Origin: Chrysochromulina tobinii
Lineage: Eukaryota > Haptophyta > Prymnesiales > Chrysochromulinaceae
Reading direction: 5' to 3'
NCBI GenBank assembly: GCA_001275005.1
Contig: JWZX01003315.1
Span: 1-42,032 of the forward strand
Length of the DNA: 42,032 bases
Shown here: positions 3,117-35,100 of the stretch, piece after piece
How the letters are laid out: each line of letters opens with the position of its first letter
Position numbering within the stretch: the stretch's first letter is position 1
Program-made: the position numbers and the translations under genes
Notes under the pieces: generated by a model
What the model saw: the letters and a program-made list of their open reading frames with translations, nothing else
Databases searched by the model: none
Told to the model about the DNA's origin: nothing

Positions 3117-5969
3117 TCATGGCTGCATCTCTGGCCACGCACCAGCCCAAGACGATGTTGGCGCGGCGGCGCAAAAGCCGCCAGTGCGCATGACTGGAGG
3201 TGAGGTGGCCTGAGGGGGTGGCACCGGCGGCAGCTTGCTGGGGGAAGACGCTAACTTCGGGGGGGAGGAGGGCGCAAGTTTGGCGGGCCTGCCGAAAAGC
3301 TCTGCGAAGAGATTGGCCGAACTTTTTTCCTCTGCCTCCTCCTGGTCCTCTTCGTCCTCCTCGTCCTCGTCCTCCTCGTCCTGGTACTCTTCCTCCTCTT
3401 CAGACTCGTCGTCCGTCTCGTACCCTGTCGGCTTCATGCCCACTTTGAAGCCCATGTCGATCGGCGTGACGCACCGTGGGCGAAGGACGGTCGGCGTCGT
3501 CGGAAGGCCGAGCAATGGACCGACCCTCGCCGGCAGCCCGCCATCTCCCCCGAGTCGAGGGGTCACCTGTCCCGGCCGAGCGGACGGGGGAAGCTCACGC
3601 GCGAGCTCATCGCGCAGCGCCTCCTTCTCGGCCTCCTTCGACGCCATCGCAAAAGCCGCGGCAAAGGCCGCGGCACCCGCCGGGACCTCATCCTCCTCAT
3701 CCTCTTCGTCGGATGCAACACCCCTAGCAGCCTCGGCCGCAGCCTTCTCGGCAACAGCCTTCTCGGCCTCAGCCTCCTCGGCCGCAGCCGTCTCGGCCGC
3801 CGCCTTCTCGGCCGCCACTGCCTCATCAACTGCTGCCACCGCGACCTCCTCAACTGGATAAACAATGGGAGCCGCCCGCGATGCGGCGCCGAGAGCCACG
3901 GAATTAACGGAACTGGGAACCACCAACACTGCCGCTTTCAGCGCGCGCTGTGAACGCTCCTTGAACCGGACGAGCTCCGACTGCCTCTTCTTCGCCGCAA
4001 ACGTGGCCCACTCGATCTGAATCACAAGGGCGGCGTGAGCCTCACGATGCTCGAGGCGCAGCGCGAGCTTCTGCCGAGCGAGCCCCTGCAAAGTGGACGC
4101 GAGTCGCGAGGCCGAGGTGACCATGCTGAGCCGCTGCCGCTTGAGCTCGGCTCCGCCCTTGCGTTCCTTGGCCGGCGTGATGCACAGAGCACCTCCCTTG
4201 ACGTCGCAGACGGCGGCGACGTGGTGGGGCAAGCCGCGCAGCACGAGCGCGTCGCCCACAAGGAGCTTCATAGCATTGAGTGCGCTTTGATTCTTGACGG
4301 GTACCGTTCGCTTGTTGACGGTCGTGCGCACGACCGTGACCGACTTTGGCAGCGCGAGCTGCCCGACAGTCATGTTATTCACACGCTTGTCGACCGTCGC
4401 AGTCATCTCCAACGCCCCTGTGCTCAGCACTCCCAAGGGAGAGAGAGGGAGAGCTGGCTTGCGCTTCTTCGCCTCCGGCGCCGCACCGAGGTACCGGTTG
4501 ATGCTCGCCGTGTGCGCTTTGCTCGTGGCCGCCTGCGTGGTGTAGCGCAAGCTCAGGCCCGGATGCGAAGTCGCCCACGCGCGCTGCGCCGCCAGGCTCT
4601 CAATCGCATCCTCTGCGGCCGTAGGCTCGAAGCATGCTTTGGTGCAGATTGGCTCGTTGTGTACAGCTGCGAGCAATGCAGCCATCAGCCGCCGCGAGCG
4701 CAGCTTGGCCGCCCGCTGCGTGGCTCGGTGTGCCTCTAGCATCGGCTTCGTCTCGCGGCGCTGCAGCTGGCCACGCCGCACGCACTGCAGTCGGCGTGCA
4801 GCATCATGAATACGCCGCTTGGCCCGTATGCTTTCCATCTTGTGACGCACGACGGGAACAAGAGCCTTCTTGAGAGTTTCGGCCGCGCAGATGAGGGCTT
4901 GGCGCTCCCGTTGGATCTCTTTCGTGATCTTGTCGCGATCGTGCCGCGGAGCGAGCACGAGCTTCTTCGACTTTTCCACCGCCACGGCCGCAAGCTGGTA
5001 TGGCAGGCCTTTGAGGACAAGCTCGTCACCCATCTCCACCTTGGTCGAGGGCAGCGTGCCCACGTTGGTTTTATTGCTCTTGGGACGGCGCACGGCTACG
5101 AGCGTCACGTTGCGTGAGAGCTGCAGCGCCGAGACCGTCGAATGGTCGTGAGCCGCGTCGACTTGCACCACAAGCTCCACCGGCTTCTCATGATAGAGTA
5201 GCTCCGCGGGGGATCTGTTCCAGCCAAATGTCTTGTTTACGCGAATCGCGTACGACGCGGCGGCGAGCCCACGTGCCCTAGGATCCAGCATGCGCAAGAG
5301 GAGCTTGTTGGCCCCGGCCGATACATCCGCCTTGAGAATTGCGTCGCCAACGACTTTCTTGAATGATCCTTCGGACGAGGTAGCTCCTCCAGCACCCTTC
5401 TTGAATGATTCGGCCTCCGTCGGCTTCGATGTCGGCGGCCTTCGCGGCGAAGGCGCCTTTCCTTTTGGCGCCTTTGCTGGCGTGCTTTTGGCCTGCTGCG
5501 ATCCACCCTGCGCAGCCGTGGTTCCACTCGTCGTCGGCGCCTCCCCTTTTCCAGCATTCGCTCCCGTCGGCCGTGCTGGTGCGGCTTCCTCCGTCGGCTT
5601 CGATGTCGGCGGCCTTCGCGGCGAAGGCGCCTTTGCCTTTGGCGCCTTTGCTGGCGAGCTTTTGGCCTGCGATCCACCCTGCGCAGCGGTGCCACTCAGC
5701 GCCTTTCTCCCTGGTGACGCTCGGCCCACCTCATCCTTCTTTGATGGCGTTTGAGGCTTTGCGGGCGACTTGAATCGACTGGGAGCTTTAGCAGGTGAGG
5801 CATTCTGCTCCTTATGCGGCTTTTGTGCCGGCGGCATGGTCGCGTCTGGATTGGACGGTCGTCGCACTGCCCCTCCAGTAGCGCGTGCAACGCCGCCCCT
5901 TTCACTTTTGGAAAGCCGAGCACGAGGCTGGCTGCTCAGCACAACGAGTTTTGTAAAACTGAGGGCCAT
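3117..5969 (-). CDS. Ala/Lys-rich protein with two RCK_C-like repeats and IQ-like helices
   Basis: The frame is open to 6191, but that would run over the divergent monooxygenase gene. The ATG at 5969 (950 residues) or the one at 5837 is more likely the start. The N-terminal third is basic and disordered, with a duplicated block around KAPSPRRPPTSKPTE (copies about 60 residues apart). Two related modules follow, about residues 264-338 and 520-598. Each runs L..SV/NV-T-(L/V)-V...(R/T)...GD-(E/A)-LVL-(K/R)-GLP-(Y/H)-x-(L/V)-AAV, which resembles the TrkA-C (RCK_C) regulatory fold. Each is followed by a basic helix, the first with a near-IQ motif (RRLQCVRRGQLQRR). The C-terminus has an Ala/Glu-rich stretch and a run of Asp/Glu (about 850-880). 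It is likely a soluble scaffold or nuclear/cytoskeletal protein; the RCK_C assignment is by eye and tentative. Confidence 0.6.
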   Translation of the reverse strand: MALSFTKLVVLSSQPRARLSKSERGGVARATGGAVRRPSNPDATMPPAQKPHKEQNASPAKAPSRFKSPAKPQTPSKKDEVGRASPGRKALSGTAAQGGSQAKSSPAKAPKAKAPSPRRPPTSKPTEEAAPARPTGANAGKGEAPTTSGTTAAQGGSQQAKSTPAKAPKGKAPSPRRPPTSKPTEAESFKKGAGGATSSEGSFKKVVGDAILKADVSAGANKLLLRMLDPRARGLAAASYAIRVNKTFGWNRSPAELLYHEKPVELVVQVDAAHDHSTVSALQLSRNVTLVAVRRPKSNKTNVGTLPSTKVEMGDELVLKGLPYQLAAVAVEKSKKLVLAPRHDRDKITKEIQRERQALICAAETLKKALVPVVRHKMESIRAKRRIHDAARRLQCVRRGQLQRRETKPMLEAHRATQRAAKLRSRRLMAALLAAVHNEPICTKACFEPTAAEDAIESLAAQRAWATSHPGLSLRYTTQAATSKAHTASINRYLGAAPEAKKRKPALPLSPLGVLSTGALEMTATVDKRVNNMTVGQLALPKSVTVVRTTVNKRTVPVKNQSALNAMKLLVGDALVLRGLPHHVAAVCDVKGGALCITPAKERKGGAELKRQRLSMVTSASRLASTLQGLARQKLALRLEHREAHAALVIQIEWATFAAKKRQSELVRFKERSQRALKAAVLVVPSSVNSVALGAASRAAPIVYPVEEVAVAAVDEAVAAEKAAAETAAAEEAEAEKAVAEKAAAEAARGVASDEEDEEDEVPAGAAAFAAAFAMASKEAEKEALRDELARELPPSARPGQVTPRLGGDGGLPARVGPLLGLPTTPTVLRPRCVTPIDMGFKVGMKPTGYETDDESEEEEEYQDEEDEDEEDEEDQEEAEEKSSANLFAELFGRPAKLAPSSPPKLASSPSKLPPVPPPQATSPPVMRTGGFCAAAPTSSWAGAWPEMQP

Positions 5970-6049: not shown

Positions 6050-8065
6050 ATGCCCGTGACGGCGCCTGCGATGGCGACGACGACGCCGACGGCCACGGCC
6101 ACGGAGACTCACAACTTCGACGTGGTAGTGATAGGAGCAGGCTTTGTGGGCGTCTCAGTCGGCGCCGGCCTCGCAAGCCACGCAGGGGCATGCCGCGACA
6201 ACGACGGCCTGGACCACAGCCGCGTGCAAATCATCGAGCAGGGCCCAGAGTGCGGGGCATTCTGGCTCGGCGGGCACGAGGCGTTGTCGCTGCACAGTCC
6301 GCACCACCGCCTGCCGCACGACGGTGGGCTAGCGTACGACTACCCGATGTTCAAGACTAAGCACGAGGTGCGTGACTACATGAACCGGTATGCCCAGAAC
6401 AAGGGACTCGCACAATGCATGTCCTTTGGCGAGACGGTGCTGCGCATAAGCCACGAGCCCGAAGTCGACAAGGACCGGCCGTGGCGCGTCGCTACTGACA
6501 AGCGCGAACTCCGAGCGCGGCGCGTCGTCGTGGCCACGGGGCTCAACCGGCAGCCCCATATTCCCCACATCCCAGGCAGCGAGGAGCGTGCCGCACACGG
6601 CGCGCGCGCCTTGCGGCATTCGTGGAGCGTGTCGAGCTGCGACGAGTACAAAGGCGAGCGCGTGCTGCTCGTGGGGAGCGGCAACTCCGCGGCCGAACTC
6701 GCCGTGGCGCTGCACCATTCGGGCGCCAAGTCGATCGACATTCTGGTGGACGGGCCGCGCCACTTTGTGAGACGCAGCACGATGGGGCAGATCTTTCGTC
6801 TCTTTCCGTACTTGAGCCTGTCGACGGAGAGCATGGTGCACGATCTGCACCGGTGCACATTTGGCGAGCACACGGCGGATGCCAAGGTGGTCACCGCATG
6901 GGAGCGCTTCCAGGAGGGGCAAGATGAGTTCATAAGGCTTCTTTCCGTCGATCTCGGCCCCTTCGGTATCCAGCGGCCACCGAGCTGGCGGCACGCCGAG
7001 CAGCAGAGCGTCGCTCCTCGCATCCCCGTGTACGACGTGGACCAGCAGCGGTTGCCGCGCTCTGCCGGAGAGGGCGGCATCGTCGGCGGATCCGCAGCAG
7101 TTGGCTACGGCGTCATCGACCTCATTATGAGCGGTGCTGTCGGCATCAAGCGAGGACGCATCCAGCGCTTCACGAGCACCGGCGTCGTCATCGAGGAGGG
7201 GGCCTCGCGTCACGTGACAGCGCGGGCGGGAGCCACCAAAAGTTTGACAGCGGAGGCTGCAACGATGAAGGCGGCGACGGCGGAGGCTGCGACGGCGGAG
7301 GCTGCGACGGCGGAGGCTGCGACGGCGGAGGCTGCGACGACGGCCCCGCCGGGAGGGACGCACCACGCCTACGACGCAGTCATTCTCGCGACCGGCTTTC
7401 GCCACCGCATGGCCGACTTTCTGTGCGCTAAGGACGGGTTGCTTCACACGGCCGCCTCCTTTGGTGCCGCGGACGACGCCGAGGGTGCTCCGATCATCGA
7501 CAGCTGCTCGCGCTCGCGCGTGATCGACTCCATCTACTTTGTGGGCATGGACCAATTCAGGTCGACGGCCTCTCTCGATTGGCCTCCCTGATGACCTCCC
7601 TGATGACCTCTGATTGCCCCCTCTGATTGCCCCCCCCGCTTCAGGTCGACTCTCTCGATTGGCCTCCCTGATGACCTCCTTGATGACCTCTGATTGCCCC
7701 CTCTGATTGCCCCCCCCCGCTTCAGGTCGACTCTCTCGATTGGGCCCGTGCTCGGGTATCGTGGTTACGACGTCGGCGCGGCGATCGCGACCGATTTGTA
7801 CGGTCCGCCCACGAACCCGCTGCGTTTCCCCTCCCTACCGGCCGACGAGCAAGAAGGGAGCAACCCGATCCTGACGCCGAAGCACGCGCTCAAGGTCCTT
7901 GCGGCTGGGGTACTTGTGGGGATAGCTGGCACCCTCGTGATGGGGGCGCTCAAGCGGAAGCCGCGGCCGACAGCTCTGTCAGCCGCCCGAGGCCGCACGG
8001 TCCTCGAGAGCAGGCTAGCCCGCTTCAGCACCGAAGAGCGGCCTCTGACGAAGCCGAGGCCGTAG
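6050..8065 (+). CDS. Flavin-containing monooxygenase-like protein with C-terminal membrane anchor
   Basis: Two exons, 6050-7560 and 7726-8065, join in frame (phase 2) to give 616 residues. FAD is expected to bind G-A-G-F-V-G (residues 29-34) and NADPH G-S-G-N-S-A-A-E (about 209). A-T-G-F (about 447) is the late FAD-site motif of this family. Exon 1 alone stops inside the intron soon after VGMDQFRS; joining to exon 2 restores a plausible C-terminus (RSTLSIGPVLGYRGYDVG). It ends in one hydrophobic helix (LKVLAAGVLVGIAGTLVMGAL) followed by basic residues, as in a tail anchor. Between the two nucleotide sites and the end lies a 15-bp coding minisatellite (about 7271-7340) giving repeated A-T-A-E-A. 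The substrate is unknown; such enzymes oxygenate soft N or S centres or act as Baeyer-Villiger oxygenases. It is divergent from the preceding gene, 80 nt from the start at 5969. Confidence 0.8.
7561..7725 (+). other. Tandemly doubled minisatellite intron of the monooxygenase gene
   Basis: Two near-identical units, 7561-7644 (84 nt) and 7645-7725 (81 nt), both begin GTCGAC and end CCGCTTCAG. Each contains CTGATGACC and CTGATTGCCC decamers and a C-run. Every unit boundary is CAG|GT, so the middle one can serve as both acceptor and donor. Removing all 165 nt keeps the frame. Removing only the first unit leaves a stop (TGA), so the whole block must be spliced out. The exon sequence after the intron again starts GTCGAC-TCTCTCGATTGG, matching the intron's own start. 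Confidence 0.85.
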
Positions 8066-11860: not shown

Positions 11861-11874
11861 GTAACGCGTGTCCC

Positions 11875-11978: not shown

Positions 11979-12501
11979 TGTGTCCCGTGTGTGTCCCGTG
12001 TGTGTCCCGGCTCCCCCCGGTGTCTTACCGGTAACAACATTCACAGCTCACCACCGAACACGACACGTACAACAATTTTTCTCCCTCCCTAGCCGAGCAC
12101 GCCACATCATACACACAAGTTCCACAGCAAACGACCGTCGCGCACATGGGCCACATCCACGCGTCATCACCGAAGCCACGAGCCCTCTATACCTGCCTGC
12201 CTGCCTACCTGCCACACTGCGCCCCTGTTGCTCTTCCCGAAATGCACCGTTCGACGCGAAGAGTCGTGTCCACTCGAACGCGGCGCGAGAACGCGGCAAG
12301 GGTCGTAAAACTGTCGTAAAAGCTGCGACCACTTGCCAAAAATGGTCTCTTGCTGGCATTGGTCATGCCGTCCCCCCGTCCCATGCCTTGTCCATTTCAC
12401 TTCCCACATCTCCCTGCGCTGGTTGGCGCAAGCCTCTCATCTCTCAAGGTTTCAGGACGGAGTGCATGCAGAGCATGTCCATTCGACACGTCCGTCGGAG
12501 A

Positions 12502-15500
12502 TTACGTCGGAGATTGCTCGACCTCGCGCTCGACTTCGTCAACTTCTTCATCGCTCGCGCCGGCCTCGATAAGGAGACGCATGCAATTCAGATGGCCGCG
12601 CAACGAGGCCAGCATGAGAGCCGTGTGGCCGCATGCATCGCGCGCGTCGAGCTCGACATCCTCGGTTCCGAGCAACACGCGCACGATGTCTAGATAGCCC
12701 TCGAAGCTCGCGATATGCAGCGCGTTCTGGTTGCGCCCGTCGCACACACCCACCTTGGCGAGTAGCGATCGGAGGCAATCAGCGGCAATCAGTGGACCAT
12801 TGGAGGCAATCAGAGACCATCAGAGACCATCAGAGACCATCAGAGGCAATCAGAGGTCATCAGAGGCCATCAGAGACCATCAGAGGCAATCAGAGACCAT
12901 CAGAGACCATCCGAGGACAATCAGTGGACCATCCTAAGCCTACCCGGGCGCCGCGCCACACAAGCGCCTGGACGGTCGCAAAGTGGCCCTGCTGGCAAGC
13001 GTGCAGCATGGCCCAGTCCTGCTTGCTCTGGCTGGAACAGCGCCAGATGGGTTGCATGCCACGCACACGCACGCGCTCGGACCCGGGCACGGGATCCTCG
13101 ACGGTACTCGGCCTGTGCACGACCACGTGCGAGAACTGCATCGAGACGACATCAGACGGGTTAGGGTGAGGGTTACCATAGGGTGAGGGTCGAGGCTACC
13201 TGCATCGAGACGACCTCGACGTAGGCGCGCAGGTCGAGTAAGATCGAGGGCAATCAAGGGCAATCAAGGGCAATCAAGGGCGATCAAGAGCAATCACGTT
13301 ACATCAATTATGGGCATTCAACGGAGATCGCACCTGCATCGAGACGACCTCCAGGTAGGCGCGCATGTCGAGGGCGTACGCGTACCATGTGCGCCAGCAC
13401 CGATGGAGCTGCCGGCTAAGTAGGTACCCGACGCCCTGCAAGAACAGCCTCGTCTTGCGGCGACTCAAGCTCCAATAGGCGATCCAGGAGAGCCATGCGC
13501 GTGCGAGATGCCGTCGGCCTATCAGGTGGATCAGCACGCGAGTCATACTGCCGAGCGACTTCCGAAGCTCCATGGCGGTCATGGTGGCGTGCCGCCAGTT
13601 ACCAAAGGCATGCGCGGCGCGCCGCATCGCTAAAAAGGTGACGACCTTGCTCACCTAATGAGGGAGGTCATCAGAGGTCATCAGTGGCCATCAGTAGCAA
13701 TCATTCATCAATTCGAGGGCGACCTCGCGCACCGTCCGCATCGACGCCTTGAGCGCCGACGCGGACTCGACCCAAGCGTTCCAGCCCTTGTGGAGCGGAC
13801 GATGACGGAAGTGGCTCATGCTACTCTGGATGGCTTTGAGCTTGAGCGTGCGCATCTCGTGGTACGCGATCCAAGCTGCGCAGCCACGCGCGAGGTGGCG
13901 GCTCGACAGCTGCCGGATGACGCGCGTCATCAGCGAGCGCAAGCGCTCACTTGCTCGCTTCGTCACGCACAGCGCCTTCCAGCTGCCGAACGCGCGCGCG
14001 CCATGCCGGTTCAAAAAGGAGCCCACGCCCATGCGGACGAGTTGCACCTGATGAGGGAGGTCATCAGAGGTCATCAGGGGCAATCCGCGGCAATCAATCA
14101 TCATCGCGCCCAAATCGCGCCCAGGCGGACGAGTTGCACCATGTGCTCGCGTCCCGAGATCAGATCCACCCAATTGACGAACCCCCTCGCCATATGGAGG
14201 CTCGTCAAGTGCATCAGGCTACGCGTCAACGACGCCCGCAACGACGCGCGCGCCGCGGCGCGCCGTTGGACGTGTGAACGCCAGCTGTGAAACGCCTTGG
14301 ACTGGCCGTGATGGAGTGTGAAGCGCAAGCCTTGGCGCATGAGCGCCGAGAAGGTGCGCGCATGGCCGCCGTACTGCGAGCTCTTGCCCGCCGCCTCGGC
14401 CCAGGAATTCCATCCCTTACCCAGATGCAGGCTGCGCAGCAGCGCGACGGCTCGCGTGACGTGGCGCACGTTGGCCTGACGAGCGTCGACGAAGGCCACC
14501 CAGCCCGCGACGGCACGTGCCTCGCGCTGTCTCCTCAGGACGCGCGCCGTGCGGCCGATGAAGGTGAGCAACTGAAGCTGCCTCGAGCATGCCTCGGCCC
14601 ACGTGCGCAGGGCGCGTGAGAGGCCCCGATGACGCTGGCTGCCCACGACACGTTGGAGTGAGTTGCCCACTTCGCTCTTTCGCCATTCGAACTCGATCCA
14701 GAGGGCCTTCCACACATTGAAGCCGCGCGCGAGGAGGTGGTCGGAGAAGACTCGAACGGCGTCCGTGAATAGAGCCGCGCCGCGCCGGCGCGCCAAGCGC
14801 ACCTTCGTTGCATGCAAGAGGGAGGCAATCAGCATGCAATGGGGAGGCACTCAGCATGCAATGAGGGAGGCACTCAGCATGCAATGAGGGAGGCACTCAG
14901 CATGCAATGAGGGAGGCACTCAGCATGCAATGAGCGCACCTTCGTTGCATGCGCCCACGACGCGAAGCTGCGAGAGAGCGAGTGAGAGGTGAACAAGGCG
15001 ATGCCCTTGCCGAGCAACTCGAGCGCCTCGGCGCGTGTCGCAACCAGCTCAGCCCACGCGTTCCAGCTGCGAGCCATCTGGCGGTGGACGAGATATGCGA
15101 GCATGCGCCGTAGCGACGCGAGCAGTGCTCCCTGCTCCTCGACGCGCTCATGCCACGCATGCCAGCCAAGAGCCATGAGCCGATCGGCCATGCGCCCAAT
15201 CGCGCGACGCGTGGCGATGAATTGGGCGTCGGAGGCGTAGTGGCGTTCGGCCCACGTCGACCAAGCGCGAGCGAGTGCGCTGGAGAGCAAGTGTGCGAGG
15301 GCTCTGCCGACGCGCGCACGCCCCGCCCCGCTGAGTGTGGAGGCCTCCATCCACGTGTTCCACGCGCACGAGAGGGTGCGTGCGCTCAGATGGCTGATCC
15401 CGTGCCTCATTACGTCAGCTGCGTGAGCGTGCGAACGCCAGGTATCGGCCCACGTGTGGTACCCACGTGTCAGGCCGCGCTTGGTGAAGCGGATGAGAAT

Positions 15501-21515: not shown

Positions 21516-22904
21516 TCAGTCGACTGATGCCCACCGTACGTCGTTCGTGGGGTGGGGTCGAGGCGGCGCATGTAGCTCTACTGAAGGAGGCAGTGCTGTC
21601 GCTCCGCTCTGATCGAAATCGATCAAAAGGCTGCCCTCGTCTACTGAAGGGGGGGGCAGTGCTGCCTCGCTGCTCTCGTCGAAATCGATCAAGAGGCTGC
21701 CCTCGATCTGTTGAAGCAGCTGCCTGCCCTCGAGCCGCCTCCTCGCCTCATGCACACTCAGCACGCCATCCACTGCGATCTCTTCAATGACCTCTGCCGC
21801 CGCAGGAGCATCCGAAGCGGATGATGCCGCCGCCTCCGTCTCTTTATCGGAGGCGGTCGTGCGCAAAGCCGCCTTCGCAGTCGCGATGACGAACTCTCGT
21901 CGTCCTAGCATCGTCACGTTCAATGCTGTAAGCGCGGCCTCGCCCACTGCCGTAATGCGACGTAATCAGTGGCGATCAGTCGCAATCAGTCGCAATCAGA
22001 CGCAATCAGACGCAATCAGACGCAATCAGTGGCAATCACCTGCCGTGCATGCGGCGTGCGAGCACTGCCCCGCCTCGTCGCCCCACTTGTGGCGCACCGC
22101 CGCCTCGACCACCGCGCCGCTCGTCTTACCGATCTCGACCGCGGAATGTTCGAGCTCCTGCCCAATCGTACAGATGGCGGAGATCGAAGCACCGCCGATC
22201 ACCTTAAGTGCCGCGACGGTCGGGGTATCCGGCTGGTTCGTAGCAAGATGCTGAGCTGCTGCCGTGCCGATGGCGCCGGCGACCGCAGCGACGCCCGAGC
22301 CCACCATGCCCGTGAAGCGCAGGGCGGCGTTGGCGACGGTCCGGGTCGTGTTGACTACCTGTATCACCTCGGGAGCCACGAAGGCCTCCCTCTCATCTGG
22401 CTGCACGTGGGTTCGGATCTCGGACAGAGCACACACGAGCCCGTCGGTGATGACGGCGGCGCCGCTTTTGATGCACCGAGCCGCCGCTTGGCCGCCAATC
22501 TGGATCGACATTGCCGCCTCCTCTGCCACCGCTGCCGCAAACAAGCCACCCTCATCGACATCGTTGGAGAGCTCTGACGGCGGAGGCAGACCCAGCATCA
22601 TCGCAAGCCGTTCGCGCGCAGGAAAATCAGAGTGCTCAAAGCGCAGCAATGTGATACCGCCGCCTTGCATGGAGCAGCCCAGCTCAATGCAAGGGACGGT
22701 CCAGAAGATGGCACAACCGTCATCGTCGAGGCTGCGGTCCCACACATCGACGGCTTGGTTGTCAGGTCCATCTGGTGATGGCACGTGTACCAGCCGTCTG
22801 CCTTTCACGATCAGCGATCCCGTGCATTGGACGAAGTGGGTGCCGTCGCCGAGGAGCGCTACGCGAGCGACCGCCTCAAGAATGTGGAATTCGGACGGCA
22901 CCAT
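21516..22904 (-). CDS. Senescence/spartin-domain protein, two exons
   Basis: Exons 22904-22040 and 21946-21516 join in phase 1 to give 431 residues. The region about 165-330 resembles the plant senescence (ERD7) and animal spartin domain. An opening A-P-E-V-I-Q-V-V is followed by alternating small-residue and hydrophobic helices, then (V)RHKWGDEAGQ, where relatives have (V)-x-H-R-Y-G-x-x-A-G. The residues after that motif are split by the intron (CTA/VGEAALTALNV) and only align with the family once the intron is removed. Such proteins associate with lipid droplets or membranes under stress. The N-terminal 160 residues hold the usual upstream beta-rich region (THFVQCTGSLIVKGRRLVHV). The C-terminus has a duplicated S-L-L-I-D-F-D motif, a possible short linear interaction motif. 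Confidence 0.82.
21947..22039 (-). other. Intron of the senescence-domain gene, decamer array
   Basis: 93 nt from GTGATTGCCACTG to ACGGCAG, phase 1. Sense-strand units are CTGATTGCGT and CTGATTGCGA with close variants, about seven copies. The heptamer CTGCCGT (plus strand) is repeated at 21947 and 22040, period 93. Protein-family alignment across the junction supports removal. Confidence 0.9.
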
Positions 22905-32103: not shown

Positions 32104-35100
32104 TCATCCTTTTCTCTTCTTGCGCCGCTTCTTGCGCCGCCTTTGGGCCTTTTTCAGGAGCTTGCGAGCGAACCGTGCAGCAGGATCGCTCCGCGCAAGA
32201 AGGCGCGCGGCTCCCGACCCGGCACCATCTGCCTGCTCCTCCTCTCCGCCCTCATCGGTGCCCTCCGAATCACTCTCGTCGTCCTCCGCGCCGTCGGCAC
32301 CGTTGGGAGCTGTCGCGGCTCGGCGGTCTCGTTCGGTCTGCTCGCATGCAAGGTTGCCGTTGGAGGCGGATGGAGCACAGAAGCTCAGGCTGCCGTTGGG
32401 TGGAGCACAGGAGCTCAGTCGGCCCACGTCCTCTCTAACCAAGGGTCGAGGCATCCGCTCGCAAGACTCTCGCTGTGAAGAGCTCTCGCTGTGAAGAGGC
32501 ATCCGCTCGGAAGACTCTCGGCTCGCTGTGAAGAGCTCACGGCTCGCTGTGAAGAGCTCTCGGCTCGCCCAATGCCCCAAGCCGGCCGCCTTGGATCCAA
32601 AATCCTCGTGAGTGTCCTCAATATAGGCACGACGAGAGGCTTCGAGGAGCTTCTCATATTGGGTCTGGAGCGACGCGTGAGGCGAAGGGAAGATGAGTTC
32701 GAATTCTCCGCGATTGGCGCTCTCGTACTCCGAACGGAGCGTGATGAGCTGGGACAGCAGTGCCCGGGCCTGATGGCGACGCGCGTACGCTCGCCCCCCC
32801 GAGCCGCTGTAATCGACACTTTCGGAGGAGCCCGCCGACGTGAGAGCTCTGTAATGGGCACTTTCGGGGGAGCCCGCCGACGGGTGAGCGCTGTAATGGG
32901 CACTTTCGGGGGAGCCCGCCGACGGGTGAGCGCTGTAATGGGCACTTTCGAGGGAGCCCGCCGACGGGTGAGATTCCGGTGTCGAGAGCGCGGAGGTGGG
33001 GCCCAGCGCAGCGCTCACTTGACTGCCACTGCTGCCGCTCATCGCTCGGCTCGGCGGATGATGATTCTTGATGATGCTGAGCAGCTCTTCCTCCGCAGCC
33101 GAGAAGGAGGCGAGGCGCATCGTGTCGGCGAGCAGCTTGGTCTTGAGACTGCTGTCGATGGGCGTGTCGCACGAGAGCGAGGGCGAGTGATTCACTTCCA
33201 CTAGCCACGGCTTACCGGACTGGTCGATCAGCAAGTCGAACCCGAGCATGAGATGGCAATCAGAGGCAATCAAGGCCCATCAAGGGAGATCGCACCTGAT
33301 CGATCAGCAAGTCGAACCCGAGCAGCTCAAAGCACGAAAAGGGATGCGCATCGTGCGACGGCCGGCACGACGCGTAGGCGTGCGCGAGGTCCGGCTGGAC
33401 AGCAATGAGAGTCTTGACGATCAGTTGCTGGCAGTCTCCCCACAGCGCATCCACGTCGAAGCCAGCCTCGCGCGAGATCGTGTCGAACACATGCCCGAGC
33501 CGCCGCTTCGCGCCGTCGACCCCGGCGGTGAAATCCTCGTGTTGCTTGTTGATCGCATAGTTGGTCAGATGGCGCTTGCGCCAGTCGCTCGCACTCGTGG
33601 CGGCGGCGATGCCGGCCGCTGCAGTTAGGTCGAGCTGCTCGCCGGAGGAGACCACCTGATACTTCTCCGTGCAGAGCCGCGCGAGCCCGTCGCGGTAAAT
33701 GTGGATGCGAAGCGGCGAGCAAGAGGTCACAAGCACGTACAGGCGCAGATCGAACTTGTACCCTTCGAGCAGTAGCGGCCTGTCAATGTACATTTGCGCG
33801 ACGCCCTCGGCCCAGCGCCCATTCTGCTGCATCACGTGCTGAAGCTCCTCGTGACTTCGGCAGATCGAGATCCCAGCGCCTTGGCTCCCCTTGCTCGGCT
33901 TGACAATGAGCACAGGCGGCTTGTGCGCCTTCATCAGCCGCGTGAGCTCCGCCTGGTCCTTTGGCAATGTCCACGAGGCCGGGAAGAAGTCGAACGCTTG
34001 GGCCGAGAAGCGGAGGTTACGGTTGAGCACGCTCGCCGCGGACGCCTTGCGACAGATGAGCGTCATGCCCACAAAGTGGTTCAGTTTCTGCAGGGGCCCC
34101 AATGCGCTCGCACGCGCGTGGCTCACCGACGTATCCACCCAATAGATGTTCCACGGCGTCGAGTATTTGTAGCACTCGTTCGCCATGTCAAGGGCTTTGG
34201 CGCTCGCGGCAGCGCTCGCGGCAGGAGCGCCGCCCGCATTCGACATCGCCTTGAAAGACGGCCGATCGATGTACATTCGGGTGTGCGGCCCTCTCGGGGC
34301 GACGAAGCTTGAGGCGAGTGGAGAGGCGATGGGCGCAGTGGAACTGACTGCGGCGGCCGCTTCCCTGACCGACGAGTACCTGGACGAGCTCGCGTCGACC
34401 GTCATCTTCATCGGCTCGGTTCTTGAGGCGCGGATTCGATAACCTTCCATGCTGCTGCGCTGAGATGCAAGCCGCTCTTCCACAGGTAGTGCCGTTGGCG
34501 TCTGCGGTGGCTGCGGTGGCCGAAATTGAGCTGGCGGCGGCTGAGGCGGTTGCTGAAGCAGTTGCTGTGCTGGTGGATGAGGAGGTGGATGAGGCGGTGG
34601 ATGAGGCGGTGGATGAGGCGGTTGCTGAAGCATTTGCTGAAGTGGTTCCTGAAGCAATTGGTACAGCGGCATCGGCGGTGGCGCCGGGTGCTGTTGCAGT
34701 GACAGGTGCCGTCGCTGTGGCCACTGCGACAGGTTCTGTTGCTCCTGCAATGGCAGCTGAAGCAGGTGCTGGGGCGGCAGCAGTGCTGGCGAGAGCGAGC
34801 GCGGCAGCTGCGTCGCCCACGCCGATGATGGAGCGCTCTGGAGCTCGAGTGTAATCTGTCGACGAATCTCCTCTGTTGGTGAATCGGTTATGGCGATGTC
34901 ACCGCACGGCACTGGCTCGCTCGACGCCCCTTGCTCGCCGCATCTCGTTGCCAGCTCGGCCAAGGCTCTCTCCAAGGCTGCCTGTGGTGCACCAAAGGGC
35001 AAGGCTGCGTCCAATGATACGTCCAACTCTCCGATTTCGTGCCTCGCGGGCACACGACCACGGCCGATGGGGCTGACCTGTGCGCCTCGAACGTCGGGAA

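What the first reader, a model, noticed from the sequence alone, without database searches (positions are those of the whole stretch)
12754..14939. An intron family built from tandem decamers that look like branch-point arrays
All five introns of the Sfi1-repeat gene, and those at 7561-7725, 21947-22039 and 33220-33295, are filled with copies of a short unit. The unit is TCTGATTGCC, TCTGATGACC, TCTGATGGTC, CTTGATTGCC or CTGATTGCGT, or a related 23-bp unit in 14803-14939. Seen directly: phase-consistent GT...AG ends, and protein families (Sfi1, ankyrin, TTLL, senescence) that read through only after removal. Inference: each unit holds CTGAT or TTGAT, fitting the yUnAy branch-point consensus, so the array may be a repeated splicing signal. 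Introners are known from Micromonas and Aureococcus; a minisatellite-type introner with branch-point arrays is not one I know of.
Basis: partly seen in the sequence, partly recalled or inferred. Interest (0 to 1): 0.92.

Follow-up and report, generated by a model that had tools for sequence, protein, structure and literature searches.

The report
Mobile introns built from decamer repeats
In the genome of an unnamed haptophyte-like alga, short repetitive DNA elements carrying a likely splicing signal have inserted themselves into genes over and over, duplicating about 20 letters of the gene each time, and the cell appears to remove them as introns, so this is a rare close look at how new introns are made.

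Summary
All eight introns are GT...AG introns at the stated coordinates. Of 64 arrays in 292 kb, 62 lie inside modelled introns. Genome-wide, three-CTGAT runs give 11,693 overlapping hits against 15 in the reversed control. Removal looks exact: a 568-aa homologue from a 2,175-nt contig matches 558 of 561 aligned residues of a heavily invaded dimethylglycine dehydrogenase gene and lacks the arrays of the stretch it covers.

Element copies fetched by terminal motif carry a direct repeat of exon sequence, median 22-24 bp: U class 16 of 19, D class 8 of 20 above control p99. D copies end in CTCCCTCATCAG and borrow a GT from the duplicated exon. U copies start with GTGCGATCTCCC and borrow an AG. 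One intron holds 28 nt of another gene's exon.

These are introners of a repeat-array type; the main introner survey filtered low-complexity families by hand. The last CTGAT is a plausible branch point. That the whole array works as redundant branch points is only weakly supported.

The parts
12754..12943 (-). array intron 5 of the EF-hand/W-repeat/ankyrin gene (phase 0, 13 units); flanking duplication not detected
   Evidence: p 0.351; junction gap-free against homologue P0241 (WRGAR|VGVCDG vs WRGALVGVCDG)
13136..13333 (-). array intron 4 (phase 0), U class: starts GTGCGATCTCCG, units CTTGATTGCC, ends in a copy of the upstream exon (GTCGTCTCGATGCAG)
   Evidence: p 0.003; junction VSMQ|FSHVV matches P0241
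13655..13732 (-). array intron 3 (phase 0, 4 units), D class: starts with a diverged copy of the downstream exon, ends CTCCCTCATTAG
   Evidence: p 0.017
14048..14139 (-). array intron 2 (phase 0, 3 units), D class: starts with a copy of the downstream exon, ends CTCCCTCATCAG
   Evidence: p 0.001
14118..14140 (-). duplicated target copy 1 (GTGCAACTCGTCCGC.TGGGCG), supplies the 5' splice site
14026..14048 (-). duplicated target copy 2, retained as exon
14803..14939 (-). array intron 1 (phase 0) with the 23-bp unit CATGCTGAGTGCCTCCCTCATTG; splice sites lie inside a 20-bp duplication GCATGCAACGAAG|GTGCGCT
   Evidence: p 0.001
33220..33295 (-). array intron of the TTL gene (phase 0), U class: starts GTGCGATCTCCCTTGAT, ends in a 29-bp copy of the upstream exon (one mismatch)
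   Evidence: p 0.000; gap-free junction in the TTLL6 alignment
33220..33248 (-). duplicated target copy 2 (TGCTCGGGTTCGACTTGCTGATCGACCAG), supplies the 3' splice site
33296..33324 (-). duplicated target copy 1, retained as exon
7561..7725 (+). array intron of the FMO-like gene (phase 2): two tandem 80-bp copies, each with its target copy TTCAGGTCGAC..TCTCTCGATTGG
   Evidence: p 0.007
21947..22039 (-). array intron of the senescence-domain gene (phase 1), unit CTGATTGCGT; weak duplication ACGGCAG
   Evidence: p 0.087

Best explanation
These introns are insertions, many of them recent, of short mobile elements (introners) into exons. Each insertion goes in at a staggered cut, so it is flanked by a direct repeat of about 15-40 bp of exon. 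The element carries one splice site at its terminus plus a run of CTGAT-bearing units that can serve as branch point. The other splice site is borrowed from the duplicated exon. D class: the duplicated exon starts with GT and the element ends (CTGAT)n..CCTCCCTCATCAG. U class: the element starts GTGCGATCTCCC(TTGATTGCCC)n and the duplicated exon ends in AG. Splicing at equivalent places of the two copies removes the element and one copy, so the mRNA is unchanged. After insertion the arrays, and sometimes whole element-plus-target units, expand by tandem duplication. Shown: intron status by models and protein comparison, exact removal at tested junctions, termini, duplications in part of the copies, dispersal. 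Inferred: the branch-point role of the units, the insertion enzymology, and the slippage.
For: Exact removal: P0131 (568 aa, 2,175-nt contig) aligns over residues 1-566 to L012 at 558 of 561 codons with one gap, across 10 cleanly placed introns (9 with arrays, 1 ordinary) plus the last array block. Of 13 modelled junctions in L012, nine show no gap at the junction in the 4pab alignment (eight array introns, one ordinary; E 1.8e-105), two fall in a gap caused by a false mini-exon of my model and two lie outside the alignment or in a mis-modelled stretch. The TTL junction is gap-free (6vzt). All five junctions of the finding's own gene are gap-free against P0241. All 47 modelled array introns would give an in-frame stop if retained.

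Insertion: sites picked by terminal motif show duplicated exon in 16 of 19 U and 8 of 20 D sites above the p99 (14 of 20 nt) of between-site controls. Lengths, over 17 U sites (one intron counted twice) and 11 D sites with 14 or more matches, run 16-75 (median 24; the longest run into array) and 7-31 (median 22). In modelled introns 16 of 47 pass p<0.05 and 12 of 47 p<0.01. At 12 U sites a frame is open after removal (150 nt) in 10 and before removal (150 nt plus intron) in 1.

Dispersal: CTCCCTCATCAG 1,799 copies against 6 control, 1,208 of them followed by GT; GTGCGATCTCCCTTGAT 65 against 0, 54 preceded by AG. 28 nt of a helicase-like exon (L058) sits inside a dehydrogenase-like gene's intron (L069) next to an element start (gene names by eye). 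Sites without the intron: TTL homologues P0006 and P0008 (69% and 58% identity; molecule type unknown) read through the intron site. An array-less family (587 exact 20-mers against 0) shows downstream duplication above the control maximum in 3 of 6 testable copies, one more equals it, so insertion does not seem to need the array.

Branch point: U2 snRNA is present with GTGTAGTATCTG; the last YTGA motif lies a median 20 nt from the end of the AG, most often 16 nt (10 of 47).
Against: 12 of 20 D sites and 3 of 19 U sites show no duplication above control p99, and 31 of 47 modelled introns are not significant: old copies or another origin. In the U control one mismatched pair reached 20 of 20. 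I cannot tell whether P0131 is a transcript or an intron-free copy. No RNA reads were available. CTGAT, not other branch-like motifs, is arrayed, which fits descent from one sequence as well as function. In 17 U introns (one counted twice) the last YTRAY lies 14-58 nt from the AG end, some rather far. No transposase or reverse transcriptase was looked for. The assembly may be a composite of organisms.
Confidence: 0.82

Rival explanations
1. Double-strand-break repair: staggered breaks in exons were filled in (giving direct repeats) and patched with filler copied from a common satellite; splicing then rescued those that happened to carry splice sites. No mobile element as such.
For: Direct repeats of variable length flank many inserts. 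Daphnia intron gains with direct repeats were explained this way (passages of PMC3443670). Window intron 13136-13333 also holds telomere-like CCCTAA-type filler. One intron contains a piece of another gene's exon.
Against: The inserts share exact termini at many sites (1,799 and 65 copies), placed at the junction with the duplication in the copies examined; filler would not. Three U copies also share a distal segment ..ATGAGCTTCGTC.
Confidence: 0.12
2. In-place growth: ordinary old introns whose own branch-point region expanded by slippage, independently in each intron, converging on CTGAT. The exon duplications would be secondary.
For: The unit spacer differs between introns (CTGATGACGC, CTGATGGCTC, CTGATGATGT and others). 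Core mismatch is a little lower than spacer mismatch. Most D sites show no clear duplication.
Against: Shared termini and a shared extended unit, by my reading CTGATKRC; duplications in register with the splice sites in part of the introns; homologues that read through the sites; next to no arrays of other branch-like motifs.
Confidence: 0.05
3. Target-primed reverse transcription of a short RNA (SINE-like): one fixed end, one variable end, variable duplications of 16-40 bp. The U class would be the antisense insertion. This is a sub-hypothesis on enzymology, compatible with the best explanation.
For: Fixed element end next to the duplication and variable opposite end in both classes; duplication length is variable and longer than the 3-9 bp listed for previously known introners.
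Against: The copies were chosen by the fixed end, so the asymmetry is partly by selection. Three U copies share a distal end. No source RNA or matching reverse transcriptase was sought.
Confidence: 0.3

Closest known systems
Introners with target-site duplications (Gozashti et al. 2022, PMC9860276; start of the text with abstract, and sections 7, 15, 16, 17 and 23 read)
   Same: Many similar introns at unrelated sites, insertion into exons, duplication at the splice sites, one site carried and one borrowed (their Fig. 2B, 2C legends; the latter from Chrysochromulina sp.), mRNA length mostly unchanged.
   Different: Here the body is a tandem minisatellite with a branch-like core, the duplications are mostly about 16-40 bp instead of 3-9 bp, and both borrowing modes occur in one genome. 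Their pipeline removed low-complexity families by hand (section 17), so this type would tend to be excluded by design.
Introner elements of Amoebophrya (PMC7789003; passages seen)
   Same: Invasive introns with direct repeats at the exon borders.
   Different: Those have 3-5 nt direct repeats, 8-20 nt inverted repeats and mostly non-canonical splice sites; here GT...AG with long direct repeats. Inverted repeats were not systematically tested here.
Intron gain by tandem genomic duplication of AGGT (PMC3443670 passages; PMC4974935 listing only)
   Same: Splice sites are recruited from two copies of a duplicated exon stretch.
   Different: There the intron interior is the duplicated exon itself; here it is a foreign, dispersed array.
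Daphnia intron gains by break repair (as described in PMC3443670, passages)
   Same: Direct repeats flank new introns.
   Different: Here the inserts belong to families with fixed termini.

Membership tests
Introner (introner-like element) | many copies of similar introns at non-homologous sites in one genome | tested here: met
   1,799 copies of the D terminus, 65 of the U start, 11,693 CTGAT triplets against 6, 0 and 15 controls; host genes examined are unrelated. Intron status of the genome-wide copies was not checked one by one
Introner (introner-like element) | similarity running from one intron end to the other | tested here: inconclusive
   Each class shares one terminus plus the array; the other end is locus-specific duplicated exon. 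Three U copies share a distal segment as well
Introner (introner-like element) | insertion into an exon that leaves the mRNA unchanged | tested here: met
   gap-free junctions; homologues that read through the sites
Introner (introner-like element) | target-site duplication of 3-9 bp (present in only part of known families, so not required) | tested here: not met
   A duplication is present but longer, median 22-24 bp; the 3-9 bp range is from section 7 of PMC9860276
Introner (introner-like element) | splicing shown by RNA | tested here: inconclusive
   P0131 behaves like a spliced copy, but its molecule type is unknown
DNA-transposon (MITE-type) introner | terminal inverted repeats | not tested
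   no systematic test made
Tandem-genomic-duplication intron (AGGT) | intron interior consists of duplicated exon sequence | tested here: not met
   the interior is the dispersed array
Break-repair intron (Daphnia type) | direct repeats around unrelated filler | tested here: not met
   direct repeats present, but the filler belongs to families with fixed termini
Retroposon made by target-primed reverse transcription | variable duplications, one fixed end, other end truncated | tested here: inconclusive
   pattern seen in motif-selected copies only
Retroposon made by target-primed reverse transcription | partner reverse transcriptase and source RNA | not tested
   no search made

The most novel reading that the evidence does not exclude
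A class of introner in which the mobile body is a branch-point minisatellite: tandem CTGAT units give any new insertion several ready branch points at varying distances, so that it is spliced at once with a splice site borrowed from a 15-40 bp target duplication. The array is then the adaptation that lets the element live in exons, and this class makes up most introns in the genes it has invaded.
Probability: 0.4. Interest if true: 0.9.

Novelty: new variant of a known kind. Interest (0 to 1): 0.78.

Why it matters
Where new introns come from is a long-open question. Here one genome holds well over a thousand exact copies of one element terminus, copies with high-identity target duplications, two mirror-image ways of completing the splice-site pair, an array-less sister family as internal control, and a donor-recipient trace. 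The genome-wide survey of introners discarded low-complexity families by hand (PMC9860276 section 17), so this type may be under-counted elsewhere. The unit number varies naturally from a few to over 20, which makes the question 'how many branch points does a new intron need?' directly testable.

Tried and rejected
A first gene finder with self-trained splice matrices drifted to 1,381 introns and was dropped. The first setting of the next bridged genes with long false introns; the final one limits introns to 480 nt. Of its L012 introns, the one at 4740-5093 was wrong (4707-4964 by P0131) and the last two are one block; P0131 showed this. The aligner itself split that last block in two with a spurious piece; that it is one GC...AG intron is my reading. 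The counts (47 introns) still include those three and some poorly supported L032 models. Two loci (L017, L023) were left out of the set, and for L012, L019 and the window only the regions were used.

A local-alignment test of flanks printed 2 of 33 clusters at p<0.01 against its pooled control. I judge its second control bad: random places in array-rich loci hit the same duplications. Against the between-locus pairs alone (p99 23) 12 of 33 exceed. I rely instead. In one search two U loci (L057, L059) are the same intron on two contigs; one search drops L059 and leaves two paralogous pairs out of the control. One control value of 20/20 remains; I take it to be the exon piece shared by L058 and L069. 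The U sites are 20 of the 28 places, a pattern that also asks for a second TTGAT; the D sites are 20 of 1,208, one each from the first listed contigs. Pentamer counts are doubled by pooling strands and are not used.

Considered and rejected: coding minisatellite (periods divisible by 3 rarely have the core, 7 of 99 against 50 of 86 for other periods); chance; antisense or intergenic satellite.

Paper searches whose listings showed no description of tandem branch-point introners: 40 of 67 listed; no hit; open-licence papers only. PMC12768974 was seen as passages, PMC11782384 as outline with abstract.

Full report
WHAT IS THERE. A gene model driven by codon usage and simple GT/AG context, run on regions and strands that I chose, finds 12754-12943, 13136-13333, 13655-13732, 14048-14139, 14803-14939, 33220-33295, 7561-7725 and 21947-22039. 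The host proteins are an EF-hand/W-repeat/ankyrin protein (Pfam finds EF-hand and ankyrin, no Sfi1 model at 1e-3), a tubulin-tyrosine-ligase-like protein, an FMO-like oxidoreductase and a senescence-domain protein. The genome is an unnamed 53.15-Mb assembly in 2,253 contigs. Among the hits that bear an organism's name, the best for the TTL and for the dimethylglycine dehydrogenase protein is the haptophyte Prymnesium parvum (54% and 68% identity), so I take the organism for a haptophyte. The assembly may be mixed.

MORE THAN CHANCE, AND IN INTRONS. In 292,032 bases there are 64 arrays of three or more [CT]TGAT, against a total of 1 in ten shuffles. With strands pooled, CTGAT forms the most arrays of all 1,024 pentamers (51); GC-rich words such as CCGCC come next (47). 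Without asking for the motif, 30 of 37 period-10 tandem repeats carry [CT]TGAT. 62 of 64 arrays lie in modelled same-strand introns (with the L012 models mended by P0131), and all modelled introns cover 11.6% of strand-bases. By codon score 26 of 30 clusters are on the sense strand; one of the four exceptions, L012 4882-4924, lies in an intron later confirmed. Genome-wide, CTGAT x3 gives 11,693 overlapping hits against 15. Density is very uneven: 11 of 26 sequences have arrays and L012 alone has 27.

EXACT REMOVAL. L012 carries a dimethylglycine dehydrogenase gene; twelve of its thirteen modelled introns are of the array type. The spliced product matches 4pab (E 1.8e-105): nine of the thirteen junctions (eight array, one ordinary) show no gap at the junction, two fall in a gap made by a false mini-exon of my model, and two lie outside the alignment or in a mis-modelled stretch. 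P0131, 568 aa from a 2,175-nt contig, matches at 558 of 561 codons with one gap, across 10 cleanly placed introns, nine of them with arrays, plus the last array block; it starts downstream of intron 1. The last junction falls in a duplicated CGCAACGGCAG and implies, by my reading, a GC...AG intron. The genomic span is about twice that contig, so P0131 is either spliced RNA or an uninvaded copy. The TTL intron falls in the ligase domain and its removal restores the TTLL6 alignment. The five introns of the finding's own gene are gap-free against P0241 (38% identity). Junctions 4 and 5 lie in near-identical sequence; 1-3 lie in repeats where register is less telling. Retention would give an in-frame stop in all 47 modelled array introns.

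THE DUPLICATIONS. Test one: compare the sequence around the 5' splice site with that around the 3' splice site in the same register, for 47 array introns, against pairs from different loci; 16 of 47 reach p<0.05 and 12 of 47 p<0.01, the other 31 do not reach p<0.05. Test two: 20 genomic sites for each terminal motif were fetched without regard to duplication and searched for the neighbouring 20 exon bases on the other side. U: 16 of 19 independent sites above the control p99. D: 8 of 20. Where a duplication is called, its median length is 24 (17 U sites, one counted twice; 16-75, the longest running into array) and 22 (11 D sites; 7-31). In the D class the intron begins with the copy, whose GT is the donor, and ends with the element's CTCCCTCATCAG. 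In the U class it begins with the element's GTGCGATCTCCC and ends with the copy, whose AG is the acceptor. Of 1,799 D termini 1,208 are followed by GT; of 65 U starts 54 are preceded by AG. Whether this reflects target choice or loss of unspliceable insertions I cannot say. Phase 0 is favoured, 29 of 47 (p 8e-5 against one third), as expected if in-frame [AC]AG|GTG codons are the targets (inference).

MOBILITY. Shared termini in unrelated genes, close-relative proteins that run into the same TTL intron (P0001-P0005 all end ..LLIDQVRSPLMGLDCL) and more distant ones that read through the site (P0006, P0008, P0009; P0009 is an annotated protein, so its intron could have been removed by annotation) speak for insertion. 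P0007 and P0010 end near the same site in tails that could also be array translation; that is a guess. 28 nt of an exon of a helicase-like gene (L058) lie inside an intron of a dehydrogenase-like gene (L069) beside an element start (gene names are my reading of the frames): a copy from one gene seems to have brought flanking sequence to another. Three U copies share a distal segment (L056, L068, L072). A third family without any CTGAT array (GCATGCAAGTGCTCACCACG..CCCCACAG; 587 exact 20-mers against 0) shows the same downstream duplication above the control maximum of 14 of 18 in 3 of 6 testable copies, with a fourth at 14; the control is small (34 pairs) and a seventh copy had no acceptor by the script. 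So the insertion process does not seem to need the array.

THE BRANCH-POINT QUESTION. CTGAT fits the CTRAY consensus (recalled). The U2 snRNA gene has GTGTAGTATCTG, canonical from recall. The last YTGA motif places its A a median 20 nt before the end of the AG, most often 16 nt (10 of 47), as in ends of the form CTGATTGCCTCCCTCATCAG, with a pyrimidine stretch between. That one unit serves as branch point is likely. Evidence that the extra units matter is weak: the core mismatches less than the spacer (135 of 1,801 against 188 of 1,861, 44 arrays), but the per-array sign test is 27 to 14 (p 0.06). Other CTRAY words are next to never arrayed, and the spacer also shares a CTGATKRC pattern, as expected from common descent. 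My reading: the element carries a branch-point unit, and slippage multiplies it at little cost.

COMPARISON. The closest known kind is the introner. Gozashti et al. (PMC9860276; abstract and sections 7, 15-17, 23 read) speak of 3-9 bp duplications and of families that carry one splice site and borrow the other, including one in Chrysochromulina sp. They removed low-complexity families by hand. This is the same kind of thing with a different body and much longer duplications; hence 'new variant of a known kind'.

Noticed in passing
window 13157-13190 (minus strand), inside intron 13136-13333: Telomere-like ACCCTCACCCTATGGTAACCCTCACCCTAACCCG lies inside array intron 4, between two copies of the duplicated exon end; possible repair filler.
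   Followed up: no
L019 3287 and 5689; L016 5494; L031 7758; L032 2912; L038 361; L069 539: A second, array-less repeated intron family (GCATGCAAG[CT]GCTCA..pyrimidines..CAG) with the same kind of downstream duplication in part of the copies; 587 exact 20-mer copies genome-wide.
   Followed up: partly
L069 152-179 versus L058 6-33: 28 nt of a helicase-like exon embedded in a dehydrogenase-like gene's intron next to an element start, a possible donor trace.
   Followed up: partly
window 11992-12026; also L009, L025, L026, L027, L030: Dispersed repeat around CCCGGCTCCCCCCGGTGTCTT, with a second one (GTGTGAACGTTAACACGACAGAC) near 11874 and 11942 shared with L021 and L030.
   Followed up: no
L012 2201-3001: About ten tandem copies of array plus target copy (CGCAACGGCAG) in one intron, apparently GC...AG.
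   Followed up: partly
window 14048-14067 (minus strand): The terminal TCATCAG is the reverse complement of the unit CTGATGA, so the last unit and the 3' splice site could pair as a hairpin (CTGATGA-CCTCCC-TCATCAG).
   Followed up: no
P0007 and P0010: TTL homologues of 58% and 57% identity end near the same intron site in tails (..SPDCT..ASDCF) that may be translated arrays; possible repeated insertion at one site or shared array introns in relatives.
   Followed up: no
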